A stretch of 64,000 nt of DNA. Source: Rathayibacter tritici (GTDB taxonomy: Bacteria; Actinomycetota; Actinomycetes; Actinomycetales; Microbacteriaceae). Where the stretch lies: assembly GCF_002932875.1 (NCBI RefSeq), contig NZ_PSWS01000023.1, positions 1 through 64,000 on the forward strand, given 5' to 3'. The notes under the pieces were generated by a model, which was not told the origin of the DNA, ran no database searches, and worked only from the letters and a program-made list of their open reading frames with translations. Position 1 is the stretch's first letter. Every line of letters begins with the position of its first letter. Below are positions 10,438-58,387 of the stretch, piece by piece. A program made the translations under genes and the position numbers.

Positions 10438-10756
10438 GTGGTCCCCCGGACTTCTCTTCTTCGGCGCCGACCCCCTGCCGACGCCCTCTGATTATGCAGG
10501 GAAGAAGCGCCGCATCCTCCGCCGCGAGTCCGTCAGATCGCGTCACCTTACCGAGGGGGGCCACAGGGGGGTGGACATGACCGACCGCTGGCATGGCCCC
10601 GACTTGCTCGGAGGCACCCCGCGATCCACCCGTCGGGCGGCGGTTCACGCGGTGAAAACGCGGTCATACCCGCGGCCCCGTTCGGGGGTCGAAGGCGCCG
10701 CCTCCCTCCCCTCCGACCCGCGAAGAGATCGACGCGTTAACGCGCCATATTCCGCC
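10438..10756. other. Intergenic with 11-bp tandem repeat at the pabA stop
   Basis: No gene seen in 319 bases. A direct repeat TTAACGCGCCA occurs at 10737-10747 and 10757-10767, the second copy covering the pabA stop codon (TAA read on the minus strand). The left part should hold the promoter for the AraC gene. Confidence 0.5.
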
Positions 10757-11404
10757 TTAACGCGCCACTGCCGGGAGTGTTGACCGGAACTCGGGAAAAG
10801 CGGACGTGCCGACCTCGCGCAGCCAGTTCTTCACTAGGCGTCGTCCGCCCTCGGTGAGAACCGACTCCGGATGGAACTGCACCCCGACGAGCGGAGCCGT
10901 CCGGTGCCGGAGCGCCATGACCACTCCCTCCGGTGTCCGAGCCGTCACCCGCAGCTCCCCCGGCAGGCTGTCGTCGTCGACCGCGAGCGAGTGGTACCGC
11001 ATCGCGGCGAAGCCGGATGGCAGGCCGTCGAAGAGCGGGTCGCCGTCGTGCAGGACGTCCGAGGTCCGGCCGTGGACCAGCTCCGGCGCCGCCACGACCC
11101 GCGCGCCGAGAGCATGCGCGAGCACCTGGTGGCCGAGGCAGACACCGAGCAGGGGCCGCCACGACTCGGTCGAGCGGTGCACAAGCGCCGCCGACGCAGG
11201 GACGTCCTCGGGGCGGCCCGGGCCCGGCGAGACCACAACCCCGTCCGCCTGCTCCGCGCGTGCGAGCAGCGCCTCAGTGCCGAGTTCGTCGCCCTCGACC
11301 ACGTCGACCTGTGCCCCGAGCTCGCGGAGGTAGGCGACCAGCGTGAAGACGAAGCTGTCGTGGTGGTCCACGACGAGGATCCGCGGGGCCGCGCCGACGC
11401 TCAC
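10757..11404 (-). CDS. pabA: Anthranilate/aminodeoxychorismate synthase glutamine amidotransferase (component II)
   Basis: 215 residues from the GTG at 11404 (overlapping the upstream stop as GTGA). Class I glutamine amidotransferase fold with VVDHHDSFVFTL at the N-terminus, SPGPGRPED, the nucleophile motif LGVCLGHQ (catalytic Cys) and the His/Glu pair in GVQFHPES. It hydrolyses glutamine and passes ammonia to a chorismate-using partner (TrpE or PabB) that is not in this window. In Actinobacteria this copy next to crgA/pknB is usually annotated trpG or pabA; the sequence does not decide between folate and tryptophan pathways. Confidence 0.9.
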   Translation of the reverse strand: MSVGAAPRILVVDHHDSFVFTLVAYLRELGAQVDVVEGDELGTEALLARAEQADGVVVSPGPGRPEDVPASAALVHRSTESWRPLLGVCLGHQVLAHALGARVVAAPELVHGRTSDVLHDGDPLFDGLPSGFAAMRYHSLAVDDDSLPGELRVTARTPEGVVMALRHRTAPLVGVQFHPESVLTEGGRRLVKNWLREVGTSAFPEFRSTLPAVAR

Positions 11405-11559
11405 GATCCGACGGTCACGTTCCGGTCGAGCACCAGCGACTGCACCCACGGGAACACCCACTCATCGAGCGCGGCCAGCACCGCCGTGACGAGGACGAGA
11501 ACGATCAGGAGCCGGACCCACCAGGGCCCGGGCAGGAGACGCCACAGCGCTGCGTACAC
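11401..11559 (-). CDS. Small membrane protein between sortase and pabA
   Basis: A 52-residue ORF starting GTG at 11559, preceded by AGGAGG inside the end of the sortase gene (about six bases spacing) and ending with a TGA that overlaps the pabA GTG. The protein has one clear transmembrane segment (about residues 15-32, WVRLLIVLVLVTAVLAAL) and then DEWVFPWVQSLV. The strong ribosome-binding site and coupling on both sides argue that it is real. Function unknown; small proteins of this look sit at the same place in related Actinobacteria to my recollection. Confidence 0.75.
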   Translation of the reverse strand: MYAALWRLLPGPWWVRLLIVLVLVTAVLAALDEWVFPWVQSLVLDRNVTVGS

Positions 11560-14859: not shown

Positions 14860-15399
14860 TCAGACCTCGGTGATCTCGACGGTCTCGATCACGACGTCGT
14901 CGAGCGGCTTGTCACGGCCGTCCGTGGGGACCGCCGAGAGCGCCTGAACGAGCTTCTTCGACTCCTCGTCGACGACGGCACCGAAGATGGTGTGCTTGCC
15001 CTGCAGCCACGTAGTCGGCGCTACGGTGATGAAGAACTGCGAGCCGTTCGTGCCACGGCCCGCCTGCTTGCCGGCGTTCGCCATCGCGAGGATGTAGGGC
15101 TGGGTGAAGTCGAGCTCGGGGTTGATCTCGTCGTCGAACTGGTAGCCCGGGCCGCCGATGCCCTGACCGAGCGGGTCACCACCCTGGAGCATGAAGTCGG
15201 GGATGATGCGGTGGAAGACCGTGCCGTTGTAGAGCGGCTCCTTTGTCTTCGCGCCTGTGGCGGGGTGGGTCCACTCGATGTCACCGGTCGCAAGACCGAC
15301 GAAGTTGCGGACCGTCTGGGGAGCGTGGTTCCCATAGAGGTTGACGACGATGTCGCCCTTGTTGGTGTGGAACGTCGCGACTGCGGTGTGCAAAGGCAT
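14860..15399 (-). CDS. ppiA: Peptidyl-prolyl cis-trans isomerase, cyclophilin type
   Basis: 179 residues from the ATG at 15399 (MPLHTAVATFHTNKG). Cyclophilin signatures are complete: VFHRIIPDFMLQGGDP, GTNGSQFFITVAPTTWL and HTIFGAVV. No signal peptide, so it is cytoplasmic. It catalyses prolyl isomerisation in protein folding. This is the usual PpiA between the rhomboid gene and crgA region of Actinobacteria. A longer in-frame start at 15438 exists but its extension lacks conservation with the family. Confidence 0.95.
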   Translation of the reverse strand: MPLHTAVATFHTNKGDIVVNLYGNHAPQTVRNFVGLATGDIEWTHPATGAKTKEPLYNGTVFHRIIPDFMLQGGDPLGQGIGGPGYQFDDEINPELDFTQPYILAMANAGKQAGRGTNGSQFFITVAPTTWLQGKHTIFGAVVDEESKKLVQALSAVPTDGRDKPLDDVVIETVEITEV

Positions 15400-15533
15400 G
15401 CTCGGATTCTCGCACAGCGCGTCTGTAGGCCCCTGCAACGCAGGGTGTCAATGCGCTGGGTGCGCGGTGCGGACGCGGATCGATGAGTGGCAGTATTGAC
15501 GCGTTCGCTGCTCGTAGCCGATGGAGGACCAAC

Positions 15534-16094
15534 ATGGGTCTGTCACGTAAGCACAAGAAGGACCTCAAGCGTCTTCGCAAGAACGCTGAGGCGGTGTGGA
15601 GCGAGCAGCAGGAAGTGCTGTCGCACGCGGCCTCCGTTCTCGAGAAGAGCCGCCGTCAGGCGGCTCAGTACGCGAAGAAGGAGGTCGTGCCCCTGGTCAA
15701 GGGCACGTACAACTCCCGCGTCAAGCCTGTCTACGACAACGGCCTCTCCGCCGTCGAGGGTACGTACTCCTCGGCCCGCGATGCTTACAAGCACAAGGTC
15801 CTCCCCACGTTCGCTGCTGTCGGGGGCACTGCCGCGGCCGCATTCGAGGCCGCGAAGGACTCGAAGAACCGCGCGAAGCTCGGCGAGATCTCGAAGGCGC
15901 GCTGGCAGGAGCTCACCACTCCTCCGAAGAAGAAGAACAGGGTTGGCACTGTCTTCGCGATCGGTGCCGCTCTCGTCGCCGTCGGCGGTATCGGCTACGC
16001 CGTCTGGCAGACCTTCCGCGCCGACGACGAGCTGTGGGTCGCCGACGACGAGCCGCAGAGCGCCGCGCAGAACGCGGCATCGACCGCTTCCTGA
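15534..16094 (+). CDS. Membrane protein with charged, coiled N-terminal region (unknown function)
   Basis: 186 residues starting ATG at 15534 with a strong GGAGG seven bases upstream. The N-terminal two thirds are rich in Lys/Arg and helical (MGLSRKHKKDLKRLRKNAE), resembling YtxH-like or amphipathic stress proteins. One transmembrane helix lies near residues 139-160 (GTVFAIGAALVAVGGIGYAV), and a short acidic tail ends AASTAS. I do not recognise a specific function. Its last 13 codons and terminator arm are duplicated at 22893-22957, marking the left edge of the accessory island. Confidence 0.8.
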   Translation: MGLSRKHKKDLKRLRKNAEAVWSEQQEVLSHAASVLEKSRRQAAQYAKKEVVPLVKGTYNSRVKPVYDNGLSAVEGTYSSARDAYKHKVLPTFAAVGGTAAAAFEAAKDSKNRAKLGEISKARWQELTTPPKKKNRVGTVFAIGAALVAVGGIGYAVWQTFRADDELWVADDEPQSAAQNAASTAS

Positions 16095-16121
16095 CGCTTC
16101 CGTTGGACGAGCCGGGCCCCC
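16057..16121 (+). repeat. 65-bp direct repeat, left copy
   Basis: Identical to 22893-22957 over 65 bases by direct reading. It covers the last codons and stop of the preceding gene plus the first arm of its terminator hairpin. The two copies bracket the linaridin cluster with its regulator and transporter, about 6.8 kb apart. Confidence 0.9.
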
Positions 16122-16136
16122 AGCGGGGCCCGGCTC
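16109..16136 (+). terminator. Hairpin terminator after the 15.5-kb membrane protein gene
   Basis: Perfect 12-bp arms (GAGCCGGGCCCC at 16109-16120, complement at 16125-16136) with a CAGC loop, starting 14 bases after the stop codon. No strong T-run follows, as is common in high-G+C Actinobacteria. Confidence 0.75.
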
Positions 16137-16145
16137 TTCCGCATG

Positions 16146-16314
16146 CCCGTGGAGACGGGCCACCGCTGCGCCTGTCCCTCAACCGGCGCCCTGCGCGCCA
16201 TTCACGTGCTGTTCCACGCCGCACGGTCGGGGCCAGCTCGCCCACGAGATCAACGGACCCACGGACGAAGCCCGGCGCCTCCGCTCGATGCTCAAGCAGG
16301 CGTCCGAGCAGTAG
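16146..16314 (+). pseudogene. Decayed 3' fragment of a Nudix hydrolase gene
   Basis: Translated pieces align with the intact Nudix protein encoded at 23002-23430. The first piece (from 16146) reads VETGHR then, after an internal deletion, GALRAIHVLFHAARSG, matching EETGYR and GPLHAIRIVYRARVVAG. After a frameshift near 16229 the text continues GQLAHEINGPTDEA, matching GELTHEVDGSTDAA, and ends at a TAG at 16312. There is no start codon and no Nudix box, so this is a remnant. It is diverged from, not identical to, the intact gene, so the duplication is older or comes from another strain. Confidence 0.6.
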
Positions 16315-16349
16315 GCGCGGAATCTCACACGCACCAAGATTCTCCGCCT

Positions 16350-16370
16350 GTGTCAAGGTAGTCTTGACAC
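16350..16370 (+). promoter_or_regulatory. Palindromic operator abutting the HTH regulator start
   Basis: Arms GTGTCAAG (16350-16357) and CTTGACAC (16363-16370) with a five-base spacer form a perfect 8-bp inverted repeat that ends directly at the ATG of the regulator gene. This leaves no room for a ribosome-binding site between it and the start, so either the mRNA is leaderless or the arm doubles as a -35-like element. An autoregulatory binding site is the natural reading. Confidence 0.65.
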
Positions 16371-16994
16371 ATGTCCAAGACGGTTGCTCAGCAGGCGCGT
16401 CAGCTCTACCGAAGCGTCGGAGAGGTACTCGCTTCACCGGTGCTCCAGGAGACCGAGCGGCCGCTCGACACCGTCGCGGCCGCGCAGGAGATCAGTGAGC
16501 AGGCTGGCGGACTCTTGACCGCCGCCGTCGACGCCGCGCGTCGTGATGGCCTCACGTGGCAGCAGATTGGGGAAGTGCTCGGCGTCAGCAGGCAGGCGGC
16601 CTTTCAACGCTTCAGCCACTCCATCCCCGCCACGTCGAATGTCCCGAGCGAGACGCGCGCCTCGGAAGCACGGGTCGAACCAGCCGTCATCGAGCGCGCA
16701 ACGACGGCCATCGATCACCTCGTTCGTGGAGAGTGGCAAGCCGTCGTAGAGGAATTTGATGACGCTCTGCGCGAGAGCGTCACTGCGGACGGATTAGCGG
16801 CGGCGTGGTCGAAGATCATCTCCGCAGCGGGGACGTTCGATCGGAGAGCGGGGACCGAGGCGGTCCGGGCTTCACGGCTGATCATCACGAATACACGACT
16901 CGTCTTCGAGCACGACGACTGCACCGCACGCGTTGTTTTTCGTGACGACGGCCGTATCACGGGGCTGTTCATCCTCGCCGGATCGCCGTCATGA
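16371..16994 (+). CDS. HTH regulator with C-terminal DUF3887-like domain
   Basis: 207 residues. A helix-turn-helix lies around residues 58-80 (LTWQQIGEVLGVSRQAAFQRF), of the sigma/ParB-like type common in actinobacterial regulators. The C-terminal half (about 103-205) resembles DUF3887, an NTF2-like fold seen in secreted or regulatory proteins. The gene begins exactly at the end of a perfect palindrome and has no visible Shine-Dalgarno sequence. It is followed, almost overlapping, by an ABC transporter pair, so it probably controls the transporter and perhaps the linaridin genes. Confidence 0.75.
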   Translation: MSKTVAQQARQLYRSVGEVLASPVLQETERPLDTVAAAQEISEQAGGLLTAAVDAARRDGLTWQQIGEVLGVSRQAAFQRFSHSIPATSNVPSETRASEARVEPAVIERATTAIDHLVRGEWQAVVEEFDDALRESVTADGLAAAWSKIISAAGTFDRRAGTEAVRASRLIITNTRLVFEHDDCTARVVFRDDGRITGLFILAGSPS

Positions 16995-17062
16995 GCGGCT
17001 CATCGGAACGACTGACGCGCACGACGCCTGGCCGCGGTATGGCTGGCAGTGAGGGGGAATTC

Positions 17063-17692
17063 ATGATCGACGTGCAGCACGTGGTCGTCGCCGTGGACAT
17101 GGTGACACTGCTCCCTCCCACGAGCGTGCGAGTCGAGGCAGGTGAAATCGTGGTCGTTCGGGGTAGGAACGGCGCGGGTAAGTCGACGCTGCTCAAGGTG
17201 CTCGCCGGTGTGCGCTCACCCACCGGCGGAACCGTGACCATCGGTGGTGAGCCGGTTTCCCGCCGCAACCCAGCGTTTCGACGTCGGGTCGCCTCCCTCA
17301 TCTCTCTCCCACCACTGGCATCAGACCTCACAGTGGAGGACCACGTCAGGCTTGTCGCCGCAACATGGTTCAACGAGTCTGACGGTGCAGAGCGTTGCGC
17401 GTCGGAGGCGCTAGGCGCGCTCGCTCTCGATGGATTGCTCCACAGGTTTCCGCACGAGCTGTCCTCGGGGCAACAGCAGCTCTTCGCCCTCGCGCTCGCG
17501 GTCGCGCGGCCATTCGAGGTGCTTGTGCTCGACGAACCGGAACAGCGTCTCGACGATGAGCGCCTCGCGCTCGTGGGGGATCTGCTCGACAAGCGTCGAT
17601 CTGACGGCGTGGCCATCGTCATAGCAACCCACAGTGCCGCGCTCACGGATCGTCTCGCGGACCGCGTCCTCGACCTGGATCACCCGCAGTGA
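17063..17692 (+). CDS. ABC transporter ATP-binding protein
   Basis: 209 residues from the ATG at 17063, preferred because GAGGGGG lies six bases upstream; an in-frame ATG at 16991 overlapping the regulator stop is the alternative. Walker A GRNGAGKST, the signature in the variant form LSSGQQQ (usual LSGGQ), Walker B VLVLDEPEQ and H-loop IATHS are visible. It pairs with the membrane protein whose GTG overlaps its stop, and likely powers export of, or self-protection against, the linaridin made downstream. Confidence 0.85.
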   Translation: MIDVQHVVVAVDMVTLLPPTSVRVEAGEIVVVRGRNGAGKSTLLKVLAGVRSPTGGTVTIGGEPVSRRNPAFRRRVASLISLPPLASDLTVEDHVRLVAATWFNESDGAERCASEALGALALDGLLHRFPHELSSGQQQLFALALAVARPFEVLVLDEPEQRLDDERLALVGDLLDKRRSDGVAIVIATHSAALTDRLADRVLDLDHPQ

Positions 17693-19185
17693 CCTCCCGC
17701 CTCGTCTCGGCAACCGGCATCTGGCGCGGGCGGCAATCTCGGGTGGCCGGTGATCGTGCGTATATCGCGTATTCGCTGGTGCTGCTCGTGCTCGTCGTCG
17801 TGATGCCCGTGGTGCGCGCCGCGTGGCTTTCCGTGACGACACCAGAAACTGCCAGCACGCTGACCGGCTCGGGTGCGACGGCGATCGCCGCTATCGCCGT
17901 CCTCGCACTGTGGGCCGCAGCGCTTGTCACCGGACGAAGCCGCGGGCCAGCCGTCGCACCTCCTTTCTTCACCTACGCCCTGACGGAGAGCGACCTGCCA
18001 CAGCGCGAGGTCTTCCGTTCGCGCGTCGTGGTGGCGGTCGTCGTCGCAACCGTCGCGAGCGGAGGCATCGCCGTCTTCTTCGGCGCGGCACTCGGCACGG
18101 CCGGCCTCCTGACTCCACCGAGCGTCATCGGATTCACCATCCGCGGCATGCTCATTGGGACGATCAGTGCGGTGTGCTGGCTGGGCGGAGAGGCCGCCCC
18201 GAAGGCATCCGCGGTCTTCGCCGGCGTCTTGATCGCCGCCGCCACACTCGGAATCGTCGGCATGGATTCCGGAGCTGTCGTCGCCCAGCTGTCGAGCTGG
18301 GCCTGGGCGTCGGCCACCGCCGACGTACCCGCGATCGCCGTCCTCGCCGCGCTCTCCGCGGTCGGTCTCGGCGCGGCGCCAACACTGCTCGACCGGATCA
18401 GCGAACGAACGCTCACGGTGCAGTCCGCCCGCTGGAACGTCGCGATCGCGCATGCGGTGAGTCTCGACTTCACAGCTGTATCGGAGTCGTACCAGGCCCG
18501 GCCCTCCAGAGGGCGTCATTTCCGCGCAGTGGTCCGCGGTGCGAATCCGGTCAGCCTCGTGGTCGTCCGTGACACGATCGGTGCCCTGCGCACACCCCTG
18601 CGTGCACTGAGTGGTGCCCTGACGATCGTCGGATCGGCCGTCCTCCTCGCTGCAGCGGCGGCGGCTCCTAGCGCAGCTCCGCTGCTTGGAGCGCTTGCCG
18701 CGGCGTTGCTCTACATCGGGTCCGGCGCATTCAGCCGCGGCCTCCAGCACATCAGCCAGGTCGCCCGCGCCCAGCCTCTGTACGGCATGAGCGACGGCGT
18801 GCTCCTCGTCTTGCACACCATCTTCCCGGTACTCATCTCGGTAGTCATCATGGTGACGTCGACGATCAGCATCAGTCTCGTGCTTGTGCCCAGCGCGGTG
18901 ACGTCCCTCCTGTGGAGCTCCGCCACTCTGCCGGTCGTGGTTCTCGCCGCCCGAATCAGCAACGCGCTGCGCGGACCATCGCCCATCTTCCTCCTGGTGC
19001 CGGTACCGTCGGCCCTCGGTGACCCCATGCCCGTGATTCGAGTGCTGTGGGCTCTCGACGCTCCGCTCTTCGCTGTCGTGGCTGGCATCGCGGTGACACC
19101 GGGGCTGCTAGGCGTGGGTGGCTTGGTCACTGTGTCCGTCATTATCGCTCTCTCTTTGCTCGTTCGGTGGCTGCGTCGGGCCTGA
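17689..19185 (+). CDS. Polytopic membrane protein, probable ABC transporter permease (DUF6297-like)
   Basis: 498 residues with around ten to twelve hydrophobic segments across the length (for example AYIAYSLVLLVLVVVMPVV near residue 25 and VIIALSLLVRWL at the end). The GTG start overlaps the stop of the ATPase gene, which strongly suggests one transporter. It resembles the DUF6297 membrane proteins that accompany ABC ATPases in actinobacterial RiPP clusters; that assignment is from memory. It is a likely peptide exporter or immunity transporter for the linaridin. Confidence 0.7.
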   Translation: MTSRLVSATGIWRGRQSRVAGDRAYIAYSLVLLVLVVVMPVVRAAWLSVTTPETASTLTGSGATAIAAIAVLALWAAALVTGRSRGPAVAPPFFTYALTESDLPQREVFRSRVVVAVVVATVASGGIAVFFGAALGTAGLLTPPSVIGFTIRGMLIGTISAVCWLGGEAAPKASAVFAGVLIAAATLGIVGMDSGAVVAQLSSWAWASATADVPAIAVLAALSAVGLGAAPTLLDRISERTLTVQSARWNVAIAHAVSLDFTAVSESYQARPSRGRHFRAVVRGANPVSLVVVRDTIGALRTPLRALSGALTIVGSAVLLAAAAAAPSAAPLLGALAAALLYIGSGAFSRGLQHISQVARAQPLYGMSDGVLLVLHTIFPVLISVVIMVTSTISISLVLVPSAVTSLLWSSATLPVVVLAARISNALRGPSPIFLLVPVPSALGDPMPVIRVLWALDAPLFAVVAGIAVTPGLLGVGGLVTVSVIIALSLLVRWLRRA

Positions 19186-19568
19186 GCCGGACCGGACAAA
19201 CGCGAACCGACCAACCGCAAGGGGTAGACAAGGAGCCCTACCTCGGCTAAGGTTTGCGCCACGCGGCCGGGAGAGTGCGCGTTTCATTGCCTGAGAAGTG
19301 CGACGCACTCGTGAGCGTCACACGTGACAACGTCGCTCGCGAGCTTGCCATCGCTCTCTCCAAACCGTCACGTCCCATCGGTCAGCTCCGGTTACTACCG
19401 GAGTTTTCGACCGATACTTTTCGCGGGCAAACAGCAGTGCCAGTGGCACGATCTTGTGTCTCTGGCGCCTTTATTCTTCGTTGCGCCTGCTGGAGCTCGT
19501 CAGCCACCTCCTCGACGAGGTACACCACACCGGAGCGATTGTTCCGGAACACGAGAAAGGGAATCCAG
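19186..19568 (+). promoter_or_regulatory. Long leader region before the linaridin precursor
   Basis: 383 bases without a convincing gene. It contains a small terminator-like hairpin (arms CTCCGGT/ACCGGAG, 19386-19403) followed by TTTT, and two more inverted repeats near the gene (CCTCG/CGAGG at 19510-19520 and CCGGA/TCCGG at 19530-19547). A weak -10-like TATTCT at 19472 has no good -35 partner. The precursor's ribosome-binding site GAAAGGGA lies just upstream of its ATG. Confidence 0.45.
19386..19407 (+). terminator. Short hairpin plus T-run, possible terminator or attenuator
   Basis: Perfect 7-bp arms CTCCGGT (19386-19392) and ACCGGAG (19397-19403), loop TACT, then TTTT. It lies 200 bases after the transporter gene and 160 before the precursor, so it could end the first transcript or attenuate read-through into the precursor. 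Confidence 0.5.
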
Positions 19569-19733
19569 ATGAACAGTGAAGTGCTCGAAGTGCAGACATT
19601 CGCCAACGCGGCGCTGTCGTCCGTTGAGGCCGGCGCCCGCACAGACGGGTCCATCCCGGCAATGACGACACCGACCGTCGTCGTCGCCACCGAGTACGTC
19701 GTCGCGGGCAGCACCGTCTGCCTCATCTGCTAG
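19569..19733 (+). CDS. Linaridin (cypemycin-type) precursor peptide
   Basis: 54 residues, with AAAGGGA before the ATG at 19569. The leader contains TFANAALSSVEAG, matching the FANxxL motif of cypemycin-type leaders, and ends in IPAM, the family's cleavage junction. The predicted 22-residue core starts TTPTVVVATE and ends YVVAGSTVCLIC. Remembered cypemycin core ends QFVIQGSTICLVC, with the same length and cysteine positions (19 and 22). Thr residues at core positions 1, 2, 4, 9 and 17 are candidates for dehydrobutyrine, Cys19/Cys22 for the aminovinyl-cysteine ring. It is followed by the three expected modification genes. Confidence 0.9.
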   Translation: MNSEVLEVQTFANAALSSVEAGARTDGSIPAMTTPTVVVATEYVVAGSTVCLIC

Positions 19734-19810
19734 GGCGAGCGGCTCTCCGCTCAGCGACACAGTGGAGAGCCTCATCGCTCCGTATTCCACTCACGCCCAA
19801 GGCGGGTCAC

Positions 19811-21583
19811 ATGTTACTGCAACGCCTCCAGCTCTCTCAGCAAATCACCAGCACCCCACGGCAACACGCCGTCAACGCCACGATGGCACCGATCGCGTTC
19901 GGCCAAATTCTTGCGTCCGTCGAGGCTCTGAGCATCGGGGGCCTCTATCGACGCGACGGACTGCTCCGCGGTGTTTCTGCACGCACTATGCCGCCGGGCA
20001 CCTTCCGCCGTCGGCTCAGGACTGTGCTCGACTCGCCGGTCACCCCAAGGATCCTCGCATCGGTGAACCTCGCAGCCTCGGTTGCGCTACTGCTCGGAAA
20101 CAACCGAAGGCCAGTACAGATCTGGGCGTCCGCCATAATCGGCGCTTGTAACCGGCTCAACGAGATACGCACCCCCTATGGCAGGGACGGCGCCGACCAG
20201 ATGACGGCCGTGATCACACAGTACCGCGCGATATCCGCCCTTATCCCTGGTGCGGACCGATCCGACGACCTCTTTCTGCGTGCCGTGAACTTTCAGTCCG
20301 GGCTCAGCTACTTTGTCTCGGGCCTCTCGAAGCTCTTCGGGTCGAGCTGGGTGCAGGGCGACGCGCTGGGCGAAATCGTGCAAACCCAGGCCTACGGAAG
20401 CGGCCCGGCCGCGGAAGTTCTTCGATCCCGACCCTGGCTCGCCCGCCTACTCACGTGGGCCACGCCTATCTGGGAGCTTTCCTTTCCCATCGTCTACATG
20501 CTGCCGAAGCGCTGCGGTCGACTAGCGCTGGTGGGGGTGAAGGGATTCCACGTCGCAGTCGCCGCGGTCATGGAGCTTCCCCGCTTCATCTGGGGCTTCA
20601 CAGGCTCCCACGGTGCCGTCGATTACGTCATCCGACGCCACGTCCTGCCATCTTCACAGCTCGAGCGGGTCGTGCTAACGGTAGCGGCGGCGGTCACCGC
20701 GACCTCCGCCACCTACGCAGCGGCCCAGCGCGCCCTCGACATCGAGCGCCGTCGCGGCCTCAAGGGCACTGAACTGTGGCCCATGAATGACGGCGACATC
20801 GAGTACGTCCACCGCGCTCCGACCGTAGCCGACACGGACGCCTCCACCGCACCGGTCGTGATCCTCGAAGCCGGCCTCGGGAATCCCCTCGACGCCTGGA
20901 CCTGGGTCTCCGCCTTCTCCCGACCGGACTGCCACGTCATTGCGTACCACCGGCGGGGGTACGGACAAACCACTTCATCTGCGCTGCCGCACACCGTCGT
21001 CGATGCACTGGTGCGAAAGACCCGATCCTCCGGCCCTCTCATCGGGGTCACGCACTCCATCGGCCTTCTAGCTCTGGCCGGCTACGCCGACCGTGACATC
21101 GCCGGACGCCGAATCGCCGCTGCGGTCATCGTGGACGGAACCGATCCCGACCTCCTCGCCGCGGATCGGAAGGACCGCCGCCGCGTTGGCACCTATCTGC
21201 AGGCGCAACTGCGAACCATGTTCGCCGCACTGACCGGAATCTACAACTTCGCGCCCCACGCGGTCGGGCGACAGTCCCGGTACGAGCCGGACCAGCAAAA
21301 CGGCATCGTTCAGTTCGTTTTCGGCCCGCGAAACATCTACCGCGCGATCGGTGAATACTTCGAATTCGAGACCGATCAGGTCCTCGATATTTTGCGATCT
21401 ATTCCGAATCGATACCTCGTCGCATCTCAGGAGAACGCCGCTCAACAGGCGGAACTCGCGATGAAACTCGGTGCTGAATATACTTTGGTTCCCGACTCGT
21501 CACACCGATCAATCATCGGATTTCGTGAGAACGCCCAGCAGGTCGCCTTGGTCATTGATGGGGCAGTCGATGGCGCGTCCTGA
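19811..21583 (+). CDS. Linaridin maturation protein LinH/CypH-like: membrane domain plus alpha/beta hydrolase
   Basis: 590 residues. The first ~310 residues hold several hydrophobic segments and resemble HTTM/gamma-carboxylase-like membrane proteins (RAVNFQSGLSYFVSGLSKLFGSSW, shortened: SYFVSGLSKLFG). The C-terminal ~245 residues are an alpha/beta hydrolase: VVILEAGLGNPLDAW, nucleophile elbow GVTHSIG (Ser416) and a late His565 in PDSSHRSI. CypH/LinH proteins have this layout and act with LinL in dehydration/epimerisation of linaridin precursors. ATG at 19811 with AAGGCGGG upstream. It overlaps the next gene by 14 bases. Confidence 0.82.
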   Translation: MLLQRLQLSQQITSTPRQHAVNATMAPIAFGQILASVEALSIGGLYRRDGLLRGVSARTMPPGTFRRRLRTVLDSPVTPRILASVNLAASVALLLGNNRRPVQIWASAIIGACNRLNEIRTPYGRDGADQMTAVITQYRAISALIPGADRSDDLFLRAVNFQSGLSYFVSGLSKLFGSSWVQGDALGEIVQTQAYGSGPAAEVLRSRPWLARLLTWATPIWELSFPIVYMLPKRCGRLALVGVKGFHVAVAAVMELPRFIWGFTGSHGAVDYVIRRHVLPSSQLERVVLTVAAAVTATSATYAAAQRALDIERRRGLKGTELWPMNDGDIEYVHRAPTVADTDASTAPVVILEAGLGNPLDAWTWVSAFSRPDCHVIAYHRRGYGQTTSSALPHTVVDALVRKTRSSGPLIGVTHSIGLLALAGYADRDIAGRRIAAAVIVDGTDPDLLAADRKDRRRVGTYLQAQLRTMFAALTGIYNFAPHAVGRQSRYEPDQQNGIVQFVFGPRNIYRAIGEYFEFETDQVLDILRSIPNRYLVASQENAAQQAELAMKLGAEYTLVPDSSHRSIIGFRENAQQVALVIDGAVDGAS

Positions 21584-22127
21584 CCTCAGCCAAGCCGTCG
21601 GAGTGGCCGCGGTCGGCGCCCTCACCGCGCACCTCATCGCGACTACGTTGTTCAACACCCCAGACTCCTTCAACCTGGACCTCCGTCGGTACGTCGGCGG
21701 TTGGACAATCCCTGGTTGGCGTTTCTTCGCCCCGAATCCCGGCGTACAGAACGTGCATCTACTAGTTCGGACGGGAGACGGCATCTCTCCCACTGCAACG
21801 TCGCTGTGGCAGGACGTCACGCCGATAATCGATCACCGCGCACTCAACGTGGTTCTGAATCCGCGCAGTCGCGGACCGAAGGCCCTATTCGACGCCATGC
21901 AGCAACTCTCGGTGATGAGGTCGAACTACGCGCGATTCGACTGGATCACCTCGAGCACCGCCTACGAACTCGTGACCGATGCTGCCCGCGGCCTGCTGCC
22001 AGATCGAAAGACCGACCGGTTCCAGTTCCTGCTAATGAACTACTTCCCGGTTGCACCCGAGGGACAGCGAATGCAGCCGGTCCTCATCTCTAGGTGGGAA
22101 AGTGTGTGGCCTGGAGCACGCTCATGA
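21570..22127 (+). CDS. Linaridin maturation protein LinL/CypL-like (DUF5819-like membrane protein)
   Basis: 185 residues from the ATG at 21570, overlapping the LinH-like gene by 14 bases, with GGGG seven bases upstream. There is one N-terminal transmembrane helix (about residues 8-27) followed by GWRFFAPNPGVQNVHL, the W-x-FFAPNP signature of DUF5819-type proteins that partner HTTM proteins. In linaridin clusters LinL works with LinH. It ends in ATGA overlapping the decarboxylase start, so the three genes are translated as a unit. Confidence 0.78.
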   Translation: MARPDLSQAVGVAAVGALTAHLIATTLFNTPDSFNLDLRRYVGGWTIPGWRFFAPNPGVQNVHLLVRTGDGISPTATSLWQDVTPIIDHRALNVVLNPRSRGPKALFDAMQQLSVMRSNYARFDWITSSTAYELVTDAARGLLPDRKTDRFQFLLMNYFPVAPEGQRMQPVLISRWESVWPGARS

Positions 22128-22702
22128 CCGCTCCACAACCGCCCGCAACCTTCCAGGGTTCCGAACTTCATCTGCACGTGTCCGGATCAATCTCAGCGTC
22201 CCTCGTTCCCTGGTGGATCAACTGGATCCGCTTCACGACACCGGATGTCGTGATTAACCTATCCGTTTCGTCGCGGGCGACGTCCTTCGTGACCGTCGGG
22301 GCACTTCAAGGACTCGCCAACGGCGAAGTCTGGCTCGACGACTGGGACACCCCAGGCCTGCCGCACTCGTGGCGAGACGGTCGAAGCGGGAACTCGGAGT
22401 GCATTATAGTCTTCCCCGCGACGCTTGACACGGTCATGCGCCTGGCACAGGGCCGAGCCGAATCGCCGGCACTGATGATGCTGCAGATTACCAATCTTCC
22501 CATCGTGCTCGCAGACGTGTTCCCGGCCGAGAATGCGGTAATAAACCACTGGCGTGAGGTGCTGTTGAAGCGTCCAAACGTAGCGTTCGCCCCGCCAGTA
22601 GAGACGCCCCGCGCCGACAATCGCAAGACTACCACCAGCGGTTTCAACCTTCCCGGCGCACTCGCCACTGCGAACGAGGCGATCGCGGCCAGCCGAGCGT
22701 AA
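22124..22702 (+). CDS. Flavoprotein peptidyl-cysteine decarboxylase (CypD/LanD-like)
   Basis: 192 residues, ATG at 22124 coupled to the LinL-like stop, with GGAG upstream. HFCD-family flavoprotein: HVSGSISASLVPWW at the N-terminal flavin-binding segment, a catalytic-His candidate in PGLPHSWRD, the PATLDTVMRLAQG motif (family PAxxNTxxKxAxG) and a late PAENAVINHW (substrate clamp region, family PxMNxxM). CypD oxidatively decarboxylates the C-terminal Cys of the precursor, giving the enethiol that closes the aminovinyl-cysteine ring. The precursor here ends in Cys as required. Confidence 0.85.
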   Translation: MTAPQPPATFQGSELHLHVSGSISASLVPWWINWIRFTTPDVVINLSVSSRATSFVTVGALQGLANGEVWLDDWDTPGLPHSWRDGRSGNSECIIVFPATLDTVMRLAQGRAESPALMMLQITNLPIVLADVFPAENAVINHWREVLLKRPNVAFAPPVETPRADNRKTTTSGFNLPGALATANEAIAASRA

Positions 22703-22892
22703 TTCCTCGGCGATAGCGTGGCCTTCGGCTCCTTGAGTATCGAGAAAGAATGTGCACCTGAGTGCATTGTTCGTATGGTTGGATTCGCGAGCAAGGCAGC
22801 TCCTAAAATACCGATTCTTCGGGACGACAATTGAATGCCCCTTTTCGGATAATCCTTAAGTGCAGGCCAACCGGTAATGCTCACGGTGCCGA

Positions 22893-22957
22893 AGAGCGCC
22901 GCGCAGAACGCGGCATCGACCGCTTCCTGACGCTTCCGTTGGACGAGCCGGGCCCCC
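22893..22957 (+). repeat. 65-bp direct repeat, right copy
   Basis: Identical to 16057-16121. Here it is a gene fragment: it carries the last codons and stop of the 15.5-kb membrane protein gene without the rest of that gene, followed by a slightly diverged terminator and then an intact Nudix gene. The preceding ~190 bases (22703-22892) are A/T richer and show no gene. Confidence 0.9.
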
Positions 22958-22973
22958 CCGAGGGGTCCGGCTC
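22945..22973 (+). terminator. Second copy of the hairpin terminator
   Basis: GAGCCGGGCCCC pairs with GGGGTCCGGCTC (22962-22973) with one G-T pair. It is the right-hand counterpart of the hairpin at 16109-16136 and could end linaridin transcription. Confidence 0.6.
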
Positions 22974-23001
22974 GTTCGAGTGCCCGGGTTACGCTTCTCC
23001 G

Positions 23002-23430
23002 ATGGATATCCGGGTCGCCGCGTACGGCGTGATCATCGACGGCGAGCGGATGCTGCTCGCGCACTGGAGCCAGGGCCCCTGGTCGGCATGGACCCTCCCC
23101 GGCGGCGGGATCGAGGAGGGCGAGTCGCCCGCGGATGCTGCGATCCGCGAGATCTTCGAGGAGACGGGCTACCGCGCTGAGCTCGAGGCCCTCATCGGAG
23201 TCGACTCGCATGTCATCCCCGCGCACCGTCGCGGTGAGCCCGACGCTGGTCCACTGCACGCCATCCGCATTGTGTACCGCGCGCGCGTCGTGGCTGGCGA
23301 GCTCACCCACGAGGTCGACGGGTCCACGGACGCTGCCGCCTGGTTTTCGCTCGGTGAAGTCGAGGAGCTGGAGCGCGTCGAACTCATCGACGCGGCGCTC
23401 ACCATGAACGAGACCTGGCTCCTGCGCTGA
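23002..23430 (+). CDS. Nudix hydrolase
   Basis: 142 residues from the ATG at 23002. A full Nudix box is present: GGIEEGESPADAAI then REIFEETG (G-x5-E-x7-REUXEExG), around residues 35-57, which binds the metal-diphosphate. The preceding WTLPGGG is typical. Substrate cannot be told; members clean up modified nucleotides or other NDP-X compounds. It lies just right of the island repeat, and a decayed relative lies just right of the left repeat. Confidence 0.92.
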   Translation: MDIRVAAYGVIIDGERMLLAHWSQGPWSAWTLPGGGIEEGESPADAAIREIFEETGYRAELEALIGVDSHVIPAHRRGEPDAGPLHAIRIVYRARVVAGELTHEVDGSTDAAAWFSLGEVEELERVELIDAALTMNETWLLR

Positions 23431-23474
23431 CGGCGCCCGGGAATCCCCCGTCTCCCCTCCGTGTTCTCCCTGTC

Positions 23475-23740
23475 GTGATCGTCGAGCTCTACACCTCAGC
23501 CTTCTGCGGGGCCTGTCACGCGGCGCGCTCGGTGCTCGAGCGGGCAGCGGAGCTGGTCCCGCCGCCGAGATCCGTGAACACGATGTGGCCTTCCATCCCG
23601 TCGAGGCCGAGGCCGCCGATATCCGCTCCACACCGACGGTCGTCGTGCGTGACAGCACGGGGGACATCGTGTTCCGCGCAGAGGGTGCGCCCTCCCTCCC
23701 CCAGGCTCTCGCCGCCCTCGCGCTGGCGCTCCCCGCGTAG
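23475..23740 (+). pseudogene. Thioredoxin/glutaredoxin-like gene with a frameshift
   Basis: The first frame from the GTG at 23475 reads VIVELYTSAFCGACHAARSV, a thioredoxin-fold start with a CxxC motif (CGAC). Near 23560 the coding sense jumps to another frame, which continues AEIREHDVAFHPVEAEAADI, then RSTPTVVVRDSTGDIVFRAE (the cis-Pro motif TPTVVV) and ends at the TAG at 23738. Joined, the two pieces give a normal small thioredoxin-like protein of about 85 residues. A one-base deletion (or two-base insertion) in the GTCCCGCCGCCGAG stretch explains it; real mutation and sequencing error cannot be distinguished. Confidence 0.75.
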
Positions 23741-23759
23741 GGTGGCCGGGGGAGGCTCC

Positions 23760-24278
23760 ATGCACCGTCGTACCGCATTCGTGTGCACCGTCGCGACGCT
23801 CGGCGCACTCGCCCTCTCCGGGTGCACGGCGGACGAGCCCGCGACGACAGCGACGGTCGGGCTGGGCCGCGGTGGCGAACGGGCCGAGGTCCTCGGCGTG
23901 GTCGTCGTCTGCTCCGGATCCATCGACGGCCTCGATCTGGCCGCCTCCGACTCCGCTCCTGCGGCCATCGGCGACACTCTGCAGAGGATCACCCGCTGGG
24001 TCTCGCCGTCACCAGTCACGCAGCTGGGTGCGACCGACCTCTCCGGACGGACGATCTGGCCCGCCGACAGGGAGGTCGAGCGGTTCCCGCCGGGCGTCGA
24101 CTTCGCGCTCGGTGCCTATGCGACCGATCGCTCCGTGCTCTCCCGCCCCGTCGTGTTCACGGCCGAGCAGTTCGACACTCTCTCCGTCGGCGAGATCATC
24201 GTCGGCGATGTCCGCGACGGCACATCCAAGACCCTCTCCGTGCAGGAGTTCCTCGGCGTCGCCTGCCGACCGCGCTGA
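23760..24278 (+). CDS. Putative lipoprotein
   Basis: 172 residues, ATG at 23760 with GGGGGAGG five bases upstream. The N-terminus is a lipoprotein signal peptide: basic MHRR, hydrophobic stretch, lipobox LSGC with Cys at about residue 22. The mature part has no motif I recognise (VLGVVVVCSGSIDGLDLAAS, then FTAEQFDTLSVGEIIVGD). Presumably anchored on the outer face of the membrane. Function unknown. Confidence 0.7.
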   Translation: MHRRTAFVCTVATLGALALSGCTADEPATTATVGLGRGGERAEVLGVVVVCSGSIDGLDLAASDSAPAAIGDTLQRITRWVSPSPVTQLGATDLSGRTIWPADREVERFPPGVDFALGAYATDRSVLSRPVVFTAEQFDTLSVGEIIVGDVRDGTSKTLSVQEFLGVACRPR

Positions 24279-24385
24279 CCGTCAGGACGCGGCTCTCCGG
24301 CCGACCCGTTCCGCGCGGCGGTCGACCGCTGCGCGGTGCTCATCACTCCGATACGACGAGAAAAACCGGAGCGGCCGGAAGACTG

Positions 24386-24458
24386 TGGAGCCTAGGAGAT
24401 TCGAACTCCTGACATCCTGCTTGCAAAGCAGGCGCTCTACCAACTGAGCTAAGGCCCC
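24386..24458 (-). tRNA. tRNA-Ala (UGC anticodon)
   Basis: 73-nt cloverleaf on the minus strand starting GGGGCCTTAGCTCAGTTGG, with anticodon loop TTTGCAA (anticodon TGC), T-arm GTTCGAATC and closing acceptor AGGCTCC plus discriminator A. CCA is not encoded. Confidence 0.96.
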
Positions 24459-55401: not shown

Positions 55402-56601
55402 ATGGATCAGCATCGTTTCGCCGACTCGCCCTTCGGGAGCCCGACTCAGGAACCAGGGAACAAGTGGGCGTTCACCTACTACCTGCCGAAGCATCTGCCC
55501 CGCGCCATGGATCTCTCCGCGGAGGTTGTGTCAGCCCTCTCGGAGGCTGACGCAGCCCTGGGCCATCTTCAGGGCCTCGGGATGCTCATCACCGATCCGG
55601 GGCAACTCATCGGGCCCTACCTGAGGAGGGAGGCCCTGGCGAGCTCCCGCATCGAGGGGACCCAGGCGTCCCTCTCGGACGTCTTCCAGTCCGAAATCGA
55701 TGAGGACTCGCGGAACGACGACACGGCCGAGGTCCACCGCTACCTCGAAGCGACGCACCAGGCGTACAAGCTGGCGAAGACCCTTCCCCTCACCCAGCGG
55801 CTGATCCTCGCCGTACACGCGACGCTCCTCACAGGAGTGCGAGGCGAGGAGAAGAACCCGGGCGAGTTCCGGACGTCCCCGGTCTGGGTCGGGCACGCCG
55901 GCGCAACGCCGGATATCGCGACCTTCGTTCCTCCACTGCCTGTCCACCTGGGTGATCTACTTGGCGACTGGGAGCGTTTCGTGAATGACGACGGACGGCA
56001 CCTTCCTGCCTTGATCCAAGCGGGCCTCATGCATTATCAGTTCGAGACGATCCACCCCTTTCTCGACGGCAACGGGCGGATCGGGCGTCTGCTCATCAAC
56101 CTGCTCCTCATGGAACGGAGGAGACTTCCCCAGCCCCTCCTGTACCTCTCCCACTTCTTCGAGACCCACCGCGAGGAGTACTACGAGCGCTTGCAGGCCG
56201 TCCGAGAGACCGGCGACGTGGAGGGCTGGCTGACGTTCTTCCTCGAAGCGGTCCGCGCACAGTCGGACGATGCGGTCGCACGTTCCCGGGAGCTCATCGG
56301 GATCCGCGAGCGCTACTACGAGGAAGCGATCAAGGAGAGGTCGAACCTGCCTCGACTCGTGGAGATCATCGTGCGCAATCCGTTCGTGACGGTCCGGCAT
56401 GTTCAAGCCCGTCTCGACATCACGAACCAGGGCGCCAGGAACCTCATCCGCAATGCCGAAGGCCGCGGATGGCTTCGATCTTTGGGTACTCATGGTCGCG
56501 GGGGTAAGGAGCACTGGTACTCTCCGGACATTTTCCGAGTGATGGAGTTGCCGATGGCGTACGACAACTCGGCCGTTCCTTACCGGATCGGCCGCTCGTG
56601 A
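55402..56601 (+). CDS. Fic family protein (class II, with inhibitory motif)
   Basis: 399 residues. The Fic motif HPFLDGNGRIGR is complete around residue 218, preceded by a Fic-N domain whose SSRIEGTQAS provides the [ST]xxxE[GN] inhibitory glutamate (S-R-I-E-G), so it is an auto-inhibited class II Fic enzyme. A C-terminal winged-helix region follows (about residues 322-365). Fic enzymes transfer AMP or other phosphate-containing groups to proteins. GTGA overlaps the next gene. Upstream lies a small inverted repeat (GAGTTGGA/TCCAACTC) that could be an operator. Confidence 0.92.
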   Translation: MDQHRFADSPFGSPTQEPGNKWAFTYYLPKHLPRAMDLSAEVVSALSEADAALGHLQGLGMLITDPGQLIGPYLRREALASSRIEGTQASLSDVFQSEIDEDSRNDDTAEVHRYLEATHQAYKLAKTLPLTQRLILAVHATLLTGVRGEEKNPGEFRTSPVWVGHAGATPDIATFVPPLPVHLGDLLGDWERFVNDDGRHLPALIQAGLMHYQFETIHPFLDGNGRIGRLLINLLLMERRRLPQPLLYLSHFFETHREEYYERLQAVRETGDVEGWLTFFLEAVRAQSDDAVARSRELIGIRERYYEEAIKERSNLPRLVEIIVRNPFVTVRHVQARLDITNQGARNLIRNAEGRGWLRSLGTHGRGGKEHWYSPDIFRVMELPMAYDNSAVPYRIGRS

Positions 56602-56925: not shown

Positions 56926-56955
56926 GAGGCCCCTTCAGCGGGGCCTCTGCTTTTT
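56926..56955 (+). terminator. Rho-independent terminator after the S4 gene
   Basis: Arms GAGGCCCC (56926-56933) and GGGGCCTC (56940-56947), loop TTCAGC-like, followed by a TTTTT run at 56951-56955 that touches the convergent NYN gene stop. Likely ends both transcripts. Confidence 0.85.
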
Positions 56956-57623
56956 CACCAGTGCTCCGGCTTTCGCACGGTTGATCCGTCAGGAAGAGAC
57001 ACGGCAACTGGCATCTGAGAATTTTCGAGATGATGAGTGCGAACGGTTTTCGCGAAGTCGGGGCCGCACGTCATCAGCGCTCGGCTGTTGGTGGGGTATG
57101 GGCTGATGAGCCCGACAATCTTGCCGGCCTCATGTTTCACGAGTCGCATTGGTTCGGTAAGGTCGGAGTCGTTCGAAATGACGACGAATGCTTCTGCCTC
57201 ATTCAAGTAGGCGTCACGCATCAGGTAAGTCGCGAGGTTGACGTCGGACCCCTTTTCCTCGCTTTTTATAACTTTAACTGTCCGGGGACGCGCGTCAGGG
57301 TCCGCCTGTGTCATACGAACGTGAGACGTGAAGAACTGACCTTCATGGATAGTTAGTCGAACGTTGGCAGACAGGGCTCGGAGGTACGCCTGCTGTCGTG
57401 ACGGGGCCTGAGGGTCATCGGGACGCGGCTTGATCCTCGCGGTGAAATATCGCACGCGAGTGACCTGATTCCTTGGCAGGAGGCTCTCGGCGAAGGTGAC
57501 CGGGTCGAGCCACTTGTACGGGGTTCGTTTTAATGCTCCGTAGTACAAGTTGAATCCGTCGATGTACACGATCGTTCTGTGTCCCAGGGTCTCGTGCTGG
57601 TGAGACGTGTCCGTAATGTTCAT
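56955..57623 (-). CDS. NYN domain (PIN-like) putative ribonuclease
   Basis: 222 residues. Starts GHRTIVYIDGFNLYYGALK, the N-terminal strand of NYN/PIN-like nucleases with the conserved Asp (YIDGFNLY), followed by KSEEKGSDVNLATYL and VVISNDSDLTEPMRLV, which carry further acidic metal-binding residues (D in GSDVN, NDSD). Predicted metal-dependent RNase. It is overlapped by four bases (ATGA) with the DUF5343 gene upstream, so the two form a module. It is composed of less biased codons than the flanking core genes. Confidence 0.85.
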   Translation of the reverse strand: MNITDTSHQHETLGHRTIVYIDGFNLYYGALKRTPYKWLDPVTFAESLLPRNQVTRVRYFTARIKPRPDDPQAPSRQQAYLRALSANVRLTIHEGQFFTSHVRMTQADPDARPRTVKVIKSEEKGSDVNLATYLMRDAYLNEAEAFVVISNDSDLTEPMRLVKHEAGKIVGLISPYPTNSRALMTCGPDFAKTVRTHHLENSQMPVAVSLPDGSTVRKPEHW

Positions 57624-58387
57624 GCCTCCTCCACGGGATCCGGTCTGTCTCCAACGTCTCGAGAGAGGGCAGACTCGGCTGATCGGTAGTTCTTCACTGC
57701 CCCGATCAACTCAAGGACGAAGTTCTGGTCGTAGGTATCAAGGTCGAAGAGGCTGACGTCATAGCTCAGCGTCACTTCCCCACCGGAGCGGAGCTCGACG
57801 CGCTGAAAGTGACCTCCGACCGAGGCGAGTGCTCGATTCTCGGCGGGCGGCGTCTGGACCGGTGTGGTGGGAGTCCTTCGTTTCGATACGCGGAGTGGGT
57901 GCGGCACTCCGGGAGCCCCTGAACCAGCTCGAGTGGTCGGAAAGTGTGGTGAAAGCGGGATGTCGGCCGCTCGTGCCGCGTGGAGGAAGAACGTAATCGC
58001 TTTGCGTCGTGTGTCGGAGGACGCGATCGACGGCCAGGACTCGGTGAAGGCCCTGCGGAGGTCTGCTTCCGTCCCGTTCTGCTCCGACAGGTCGAGCGCG
58101 GCCGAATAGTACTGCCCGACCAGGCGCCCGAACTTTGCCTTCCGCTCATCCGTCGGGGTTTGCACGAGGTCTATGAGATTCGACTGCACTGTTCCGTCCT
58201 CGCCCGTCAGACCGAACGAGGCCAGGGCCATGGAGAGGTTGGCCTGATCCGTACCCGACCTGGAGTTCATCAGCGACCTGTCGATGCGAGGAGGAAGCGG
58301 CTTGCTGGCCAGCTCGTCGATGAACGACCAAAACGTCTGGAATGACATGTATGGCGGTTTGAACTCGGCTGCGTCCATGTCAATCAC
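57620..58387 (-). CDS. DUF5343-like protein paired with NYN nuclease
   Basis: 255 residues. The N-terminal half reads PPYMSFQTFWSFIDELASKP and PPRIDRSLMNSRSGTDQANL, matching the DUF5343 family pattern (YM..F..LP.RID..L), with Thr/Pro-rich linker and a C-terminal strand region (about 185-240). No catalytic motif. Coupled to the NYN gene, and preceded by a promoter with repeated TGTGGCA elements. DUF5343 proteins occur near restriction/defence genes in other bacteria to my recollection; a role as DNA/RNA-binding partner of the nuclease is inference. Confidence 0.7.
   Translation of the reverse strand: MIDMDAAEFKPPYMSFQTFWSFIDELASKPLPPRIDRSLMNSRSGTDQANLSMALASFGLTGEDGTVQSNLIDLVQTPTDERKAKFGRLVGQYYSAALDLSEQNGTEADLRRAFTESWPSIASSDTRRKAITFFLHAARAADIPLSPHFPTTRAGSGAPGVPHPLRVSKRRTPTTPVQTPPAENRALASVGGHFQRVELRSGGEVTLSYDVSLFDLDTYDQNFVLELIGAVKNYRSAESALSRDVGDRPDPVEEA

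What the first reader, a model, noticed from the sequence alone, without database searches (positions are those of the whole stretch)
16371..22702. Compact linaridin biosynthetic gene cluster in a Microbacteriaceae-type genome
Seen: a 54-residue peptide with a FANxxL-type leader motif, IPAM junction and a 22-residue core ending GSTVCLIC with Cys at positions 19 and 22, followed by membrane/alpha-beta-hydrolase (LinH-like), DUF5819-like (LinL-like) and HFCD flavoprotein (CypD-like) genes in overlapping order. Known: cypemycin/grisemycin/salinipeptin clusters have this set and give peptides with dehydrobutyrines and a C-terminal aminovinyl-cysteine. Inference: the cluster makes a new linaridin. 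I recalled the cypemycin sequence from memory and did not search. Linaridins are best known from Streptomyces, so this compact version would be notable.
Basis: partly seen in the sequence, partly recalled or inferred. Interest (0 to 1): 0.92.

Follow-up and report, generated by a model that had tools for sequence, protein, structure and literature searches.

The report
Methyltransferase-free type-A linaridin gene cluster
This is an intact-looking gene set for making a small modified antibiotic-like peptide of the known cypemycin type, but from a branch in which the usual enzyme for capping the front end of the peptide was not found and the peptide starts with threonine instead, which suggests a different, easily tested front-end chemistry.

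Summary
cypA (19569-19733) matches NCBIfam linaridin_CypA (87.7 bits, cut-off 35) and cypD matches the CypD decarboxylase (329 bits, cut-off 215; PDB 6JDD E=1.6e-69). cypH and cypL lie between them, with an HTH-type protein and an ABC transporter upstream. It is a type-A (cypemycin-class) linaridin cluster in a Microbacteriaceae replication-origin region.

No CypM N-methyltransferase was found in the 64 kb, and core residue 1 is Thr. Across 11 clusters with a readable precursor, Thr1 goes with no CypM ortholog found (8 of 8) and Ala1/Val1 with CypM (3 of 3). The tree allows as few as one or two events. I predict that Thr1 is dehydrated and hydrolyses to a 2-oxobutyryl cap after leader removal, replacing dimethylalanine.

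The cluster is an insertion: of 14 other congeners besides G228, 13 lack it at this site and one contig falls short. G228 carries it with an IS element before cypA and a frameshifted cypH.

Type-A linaridin clusters outside Streptomyces are already in print (Brevibacterium, PMC5719810): a new variant of a known kind. No product is shown.

The parts
16052..16121 (+). left copy of a 70-nt direct repeat (3' end of gene 15483-16094 and the sequence just after it)
   Evidence: the repeat finder, 99% identical to 22888-22957
16191..16267 (+). degraded remnant of a second Nudix copy at the left insertion scar (inferred from weak similarity)
   Evidence: blastn 73% over 79 columns to 23254-23332, E=2.7e-5
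16351..16369 (+). palindrome TGTCAAG-GTAGT-CTTGACA one base before the ATG of the HTH gene; likely autoregulatory operator overlapping a TAnnnT -10 (inference)
   Evidence: only perfect copy in the window; symmetry kept in G302 by a paired change, kept in part in G228 and L002
16371..16994 (+). HTH-DUF3887 protein, putative cluster regulator
   Evidence: PF13026 E=2.4e-12 over cut-off, HTH_23 weak; phrog_686 HTH E=7.6e-9
16991..17692 (+). ABC transporter ATPase (export and/or self-immunity, inferred)
   Evidence: PF00005 E=6.7e-27
17689..19185 (+). likely ABC permease partner
   Evidence: no Pfam or NCBIfam match; homologs beside the ATPase in L002, L003, L004, L006, L007, L019, L020
19569..19733 (+). 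cypA precursor: leader 19569-19664 (32 aa), core 19665-19730 (22 aa, [22 protein letters not shown])
   Evidence: NF033752 linaridin_CypA 87.7 bits, cut-off 35; reading checked
19811..21583 (+). cypH: HTTM-like membrane domain fused to alpha/beta hydrolase; candidate triad Ser416, Asp442, His565 invariant in the 8 sequences aligned
   Evidence: Pfam, alignment A2, model and fold search
21570..22127 (+). cypL, DUF5819-like linaridin maturation protein (open frame from 21471; likely start ATG 21570)
   Evidence: PF19136 E=2.8e-4, below cut-off; alignment A3 with 9 homologs, 30-92% identity
22124..22702 (+). cypD, flavin-dependent peptidyl-cysteine decarboxylase (open frame from 22094; likely start ATG 22124)
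   Evidence: NF033753 329 bits, cut-off 215; PDB 6jdd E=1.6e-69; 60% identity
22888..22957 (+). right copy of the 70-nt direct repeat, ahead of the intact Nudix gene
   Evidence: contiguous with Nudix as in congeners
23002..23430 (+). Nudix hydrolase, chromosomal neighbour, not part of the cluster
   Evidence: PF00293 E=2.4e-23; present at the empty site; start ATG read

Best explanation
16371-22702 is an apparently intact type-A linaridin (cypemycin-class RiPP) cluster. CypA is made as a 54-aa precursor. CypH and CypL modify the leader-bound core: Thr residues become dehydrobutyrine, Cys19 is dethiolated and some residues may be epimerised (family knowledge; which enzyme does which step is not settled in what I read). 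CypD oxidatively decarboxylates Cys22, and its enethiol adds to residue 19 to close an aminovinyl-cysteine ring. The leader is cut at PAM|TTP by a protease outside the cluster or by the CypH hydrolase domain, and the ABC pair exports the peptide and/or protects the producer. Unlike cypemycin, no CypM was found and the core begins with Thr. I infer that Thr1 becomes Dhb and hydrolyses on leader removal to a 2-oxobutyryl cap, so there is no N-terminal amine to methylate. The cluster entered this chromosomal site in the common ancestor of the window and G228, with duplication of the flank (inferred). Shown: gene content, homology, open frames, conserved candidate catalytic residues, the Thr1/no-CypM association, the empty site in congeners. 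Inferred: all chemistry, cap, export, regulation.
For: CypA and CypD over curated cut-offs; solved-structure homolog CypD 6JDD. CypH, CypL and CypD align across clusters, including L005, whose precursor core [22 protein letters not shown] is cypemycin-type. The candidate Ser-Asp-His triad of CypH is invariant in the 8 sequences aligned (G228, L004 and L077 were not in that alignment), and its C-terminal half matches alpha/beta hydrolases by fold. All window frames are open; dN/dS between window and G228 is 0.13-0.34 for the cluster genes, with G228 cypH compared as two separate pieces. Thr1 with no CypM ortholog found 8 of 8, Ala1/Val1 with CypM 3 of 3. Precedent for the cap: in the AviMeCys RiPP thiostreptamide S4 an S1T precursor gave an N-terminal 2-oxobutyryl product (PMC8153245, passages); rosin A1, an Avi(Me)Cys lanthipeptide, carries it naturally (PMC12291118, passages). 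Cys19 dethiolation in cypemycin: PMC10880069 (passages).
Against: No product or transcript is known. The window's genome is not held, so CypM could only be looked for within 64 kb. CypL is recognised by Pfam only below cut-off. The Thr1/no-CypM pattern needs only one or two changes on the tree, so it may be descent, not function. The only congeneric copy (G228) is interrupted by an IS element and a frameshift, so the trait may be decaying in this genus.
Confidence: 0.9

Rival explanations
1. Same cluster, but Thr1 escapes dehydration and the mature peptide has a free, unmethylated N-terminal Thr amine.
For: Corynaridin, a type-B linaridin whose cluster also lacks a methyltransferase, is reported as not dimethylated (PMC9927463, sections 9 and 11 read).
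Against: In that same paper the main product had all its Thr and Ser dehydrated, so a core Thr is likely to be modified; its residue 1 is not given in the text I read.
Confidence: 0.3
2. N-methylation is done in trans by a methyltransferase encoded elsewhere, giving dimethyl-Thr or similar.
For: All 12 searched genomes have proteins at least distantly similar to CypM.
Against: CypM-level similarity (77-100% identity over nearly full length) occurs only in the three genomes with Ala1/Val1 clusters. The best-scoring hit in each of the other nine is at most 43% identical over part of the length; short pieces reach 51-54% over 35 residues.
Confidence: 0.08
3. The cluster is a silent or dying acquisition that makes nothing.
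For: G228, the one congener with it, has an IS element before cypA and a frameshifted cypH; 13 of the other 14 congeners lack it at this site, the last contig falling short.
Against: All window frames are open; cluster dN/dS 0.13-0.34; the precursor and the operator-like palindrome are conserved to other genera.
Confidence: 0.2
4. The alpha/beta-hydrolase half of CypH is the leader peptidase, so the cluster needs no separate protease.
For: No protease family was matched by the genes of 16371-22702; invariant Ser416/Asp442/His565 in 8 sequences; fold matches include proline iminopeptidase 3nwo and proline amide hydrolase 7a6g.
Against: Those are two of the 50 rows shown, among many hydrolases of other kinds (373 matches at E<=0.001 in all, the rest not listed); the fold does not fix the reaction. 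PMC9927463 says other linaridin clusters also lack a protease gene and assigns such proteins to maturation (passages).
Confidence: 0.2

Closest known systems
Cypemycin cluster (type-A linaridin; L005, Streptomyces sp. CB02980, core [22 protein letters not shown]; the name cypemycin for this sequence is recalled)
   Same: Precursor leader motif, PAM junction, GST(I/V)CLxC end, order A-H-L-D, ABC transporter genes
   Different: Has CypM after cypD and Ala1; here no CypM found, Thr1, E10-Y11 in place of Q10-F11, transporter and HTH gene upstream of cypA
   Same: Same four genes A-H-L-D
   Different: CypM present, Ala1 or Val1
Linaridin cluster of Brevibacterium sp. 239c (L004 and L085; reported in PMC5719810)
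   Same: cypH, L, D, T homologs reported in the paper; no CypM ortholog found in the genome; core begins TTP
   Different: 19-residue core; transporter genes downstream of cypD
G228, G302 and Curtobacterium MAG (L002) clusters
   Same: Same seven-gene order HTH-ABC-ABC-A-H-L-D and Thr1
   Different: G228 copy interrupted; L002 core 25 residues
Corynaridin (type-B linaridin, PMC9927463)
   Same: Linaridin without methyltransferase
   Different: No decarboxylase, no C-terminal Cys, separate HTTM and hydrolase genes (passages)

Membership tests
Linaridin (LinL/LinH-containing RiPP clusters) | CypL/LinL homolog | tested here: met
   55% identity to CypL of L005; Pfam DUF5819 only below cut-off
Linaridin (LinL/LinH-containing RiPP clusters) | CypH/LinH homolog (HTTM plus alpha/beta hydrolase) | tested here: met
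   50% identity to L005 CypH; Pfam hydrolase over cut-off, HTTM below
Linaridin (LinL/LinH-containing RiPP clusters) | Precursor with PxxxTP junction and several Thr in the core | tested here: met
   PAMTTP, five Thr in the core; motif as given in PMC9927463
Type-A linaridin (cypemycin family) | Precursor of the CypA family with two C-terminal Cys | tested here: met
   NF033752 87.7 bits, cut-off 35
Type-A linaridin (cypemycin family) | CypD decarboxylase | tested here: met
   NF033753 329 bits, cut-off 215
Type-A linaridin (cypemycin family) | CypM N-methyltransferase (found in the characterised members; I take the decarboxylase, not CypM, as what separates type A from type B, following PMC9927463) | tested here: inconclusive
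   No tblastn hit at E<=10 in the 64-kb window; the rest of the genome is not held
Type-A linaridin (cypemycin family) | Dhb residues and C-terminal AviCys in the product | not testable with these tools
   No mass data
Lanthipeptide | LanB/LanM/LanKC-type dehydratase or cyclase in the cluster | tested here: not met
   No such family among the Pfam and NCBIfam rows shown for the cluster genes (only the ABC ATPase list was cut at 25 rows)

The most novel reading that the evidence does not exclude
A branch of type-A linaridins (Microbacteriaceae, Brevibacterium and one Streptomycetaceae genome) has exchanged the dimethylamino N-terminus for a 2-oxobutyryl cap encoded simply by placing Thr at core position 1, so that a precursor residue does the job of the methyltransferase gene.
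Probability: 0.45. Interest if true: 0.55.

Novelty: new variant of a known kind. Interest (0 to 1): 0.42.

Why it matters
A 2023 review says all characterised linaridins are alpha-N-dimethylated and that this is essential for cypemycin activity (PMC10373908, passages); corynaridin (PMC9927463) is an exception of type B. A conserved type-A branch in which the enzyme was not found and residue 1 is Thr makes it directly testable whether the N-cap can be replaced by precursor-encoded chemistry. It also gives natural CypH/L/D sets with cores of 19, 22 and 25 residues for studying the linaridin dehydration step.

Tried and rejected
Mobile element: megablast of 15000-24400 found no match in 72,556 plasmid records. 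CypD gave no match in viral contigs by exact 8-residue patterns, which reach only close relatives. The 9 plasmid records with a tblastn match to CypD are all under 60% identity, and the one examined (H2) is a class V lanthipeptide cluster. No integrase family was matched by the cluster genes.

Lanthipeptide or thioamitide membership: rejected, no matching dehydratase or cyclase family in the rows shown.

An operator site for the regulator upstream of cypA: not found; the only other match in the window, at 56401 with 3 mismatches, is within chance (31 of 100 shuffles give 2 or more matches).

Rows dropped before the Thr1/CypM count: of 12 genomes examined plus the window, G007 (decayed Brevibacterium linens fragment) and G742 (short contig) have no CypA hit, leaving 11. 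Loci L076, L078 and L079 were left out because they hold distant flavoproteins without CypA, H or L hits.

Not searched: the rest of the genomes of six congeners (G405-G410) for CypD; only the gyrA-side region was fetched.
Full report
WHAT IS THERE. The precursor matches NCBIfam linaridin_CypA at E=4.9e-25 (87.7 bits, cut-off 35), and the last gene matches the CypD peptidyl-cysteine decarboxylase at E=4.9e-99 (329 bits, cut-off 215). CypD's best match among solved structures is 6JDD, the cypemycin decarboxylase (E=1.6e-69; 60% identity). cypH carries an alpha/beta-hydrolase domain over cut-off and an HTTM-like half below cut-off. Its model (mean pLDDT 73.4) has 373 PDB matches at E<=0.001, and the 50 rows shown are alpha/beta-hydrolase-type enzymes by their titles. 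Residues in the places expected for a catalytic triad, Ser416, Asp442 and His565, are invariant in the 8 sequences aligned (G228, L004 and L077 not included; distances in the model were not measured). cypL is 30-92% identical to nine homologs. Upstream, an HTH-DUF3887 gene, an ABC ATPase and a likely permease overlap by 4 nt at each junction (coordinates).

RELATIVES. In sampled genomes CypD over cut-off is rare: 3 of 398 in the family of Herbiconiux, 3 of 396 in its order, 2 of 394 in the family of L005, 2 of 60 in the family of Brevibacterium 239c, 1 of 247 in the genus of L007, 2 of 345 in the class. These samples overlap and include the query genomes.

THE MISSING METHYLTRANSFERASE. CypM lies directly after cypD in L005, L006 and L075. 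A CypM query gave no hit in the 64-kb window at E<=10. In 12 whole genomes CypM-level identity (77-100%) occurs only in those same three. The best-scoring hit in each of the other nine is at most 43% identical over part of the length, and short pieces reach 51-54% over 35 residues. Cores read after PAM: window [22 protein letters not shown]; G228 [22 protein letters not shown]; G302 [22 protein letters not shown]; Curtobacterium MAG [25 protein letters not shown]; Herbiconiux [22 protein letters not shown]; Microbacterium [22 protein letters not shown]; Brevibacterium 239c [19 protein letters not shown]; G968 (Streptomycetaceae) TTPTIIAVCEVVVTGSTICLGC; against [22 protein letters not shown] (L005), [19 protein letters not shown] (L006) and [22 protein letters not shown] (L075) with CypM. 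So Thr1 without CypM found 8 of 8, Ala1/Val1 with CypM 3 of 3 (Fisher p=0.006). This p-value ignores kinship. On the H+L+D tree the seven Micrococcales rows group together only with open support (86/99), the three CypM rows lie outside them, and G968 is a very long branch of unsure place; one or two events explain the pattern. For the window itself only 64 kb could be searched; G001 (L002) comes from a MAG of 2.5 Mb whose completeness is not given.

MECHANISM. [quoted passage not shown] PMC9927463, passages). PMC10373908 (passages) says that characterised linaridins are alpha-N-dimethylated, that this is essential for cypemycin, and that GrmL is a possible epimerase. A leader-bound Thr1 that is dehydrated would become an N-terminal Dhb on leader removal and hydrolyse to 2-oxobutyryl. 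This was seen for an S1T thiostreptamide precursor (PMC8153245, passages) and in rosin A1 (PMC12291118, passages). I therefore read Thr1 as a genetically encoded replacement for CypM. My search for 'linaridin' with 'oxobutyryl' returned only those two papers, and in the passages seen the group is on a thioamitide or a lanthipeptide. The library lacks the main linaridin papers, so this is no proof that it is unreported.

ORIGIN AND INTEGRITY. The window is a chromosomal origin region: dnaA, dnaN, recF, gyrB and gyrA lie at 25-36 kb. Of the 14 congeners besides G228, 11 have the gene of 15483-16094 directly followed by Nudix, 2 have Nudix inverted nearby, and 1 contig does not reach the site. 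None of the 14 fetched regions has a blastn match to 16371-22702 at E<=1e-3. In the window the cluster sits between that gene and Nudix, bracketed by a 70-nt direct repeat of the gene end, with a degraded Nudix-like piece on the left. In G228 the orthologous cluster (about 90% identical DNA) sits further on: Nudix is intact on the left together with a degraded piece of the next gene, and the tail of Nudix plus that next gene lie on the right. Cluster dS (0.20-0.40) overlaps flank dS (0.19-0.34). The simplest reading is one insertion in the common ancestor with duplication of the flank, followed by loss of opposite copies; two independent insertions are not excluded. Third-position GC of the cluster genes (0.71-0.79) is lower than that of most neighbours, consistent with acquisition. 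The window's frames are open. G228 has an IS element (DDE transposase, PF13359 E=2.8e-21; matching inverted ends) between permease and cypA, and a frameshift in cypH; a sequencing error there is not excluded.

REGULATION. A 19-nt palindrome one base before the ATG of the HTH gene (16351-16369) is the only perfect copy in the window. G302 keeps the symmetry through a paired change; G228 and L002 keep five of seven arm pairs. A TAnnnT element inside it suggests autorepression of a nearly leaderless transcript (inference).

VERDICT. A real, apparently intact type-A linaridin cluster, a new variant of a known kind. Interest 0.42: the class and its occurrence outside Streptomyces are known, but the Thr1/no-CypM branch makes a clean chemical prediction.

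Noticed in passing
16351-16369: Perfect palindrome TGTCAAG-GTAGT-CTTGACA one base before the HTH-DUF3887 gene, with symmetry kept by a paired change in G302; a likely autoregulatory operator.
   Followed up: partly
L019:6417-7330: G228 carries an IS element (ends GAGGCTTATGCAAAAT / ATTTTGCATAAGCCTC; DDE transposase) between the permease and cypA, and its cypH is frameshifted near codon 195.
   Followed up: partly
16052-16121, 22888-22957; L019:2879-3000 and 10567-11437: Complementary duplicate scars in window and G228 fit one ancestral insertion with flank duplication and loss of opposite copies.
   Followed up: yes
L062, L063: In two congeners (G338, G408) the Nudix gene near this site is inverted, so the spot downstream of gyrA has been rearranged more than once.
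   Followed up: no
L077:5976-7732: In G968 (Streptomycetaceae) the two halves of cypH match in different reading frames, as two overlapping open frames, and its core has Cys at position 9.
   Followed up: no
56955-58387: A pair of genes with low third-position GC, one a NYN-domain protein, the other without a Pfam match at E<=1e-5.
   Followed up: no
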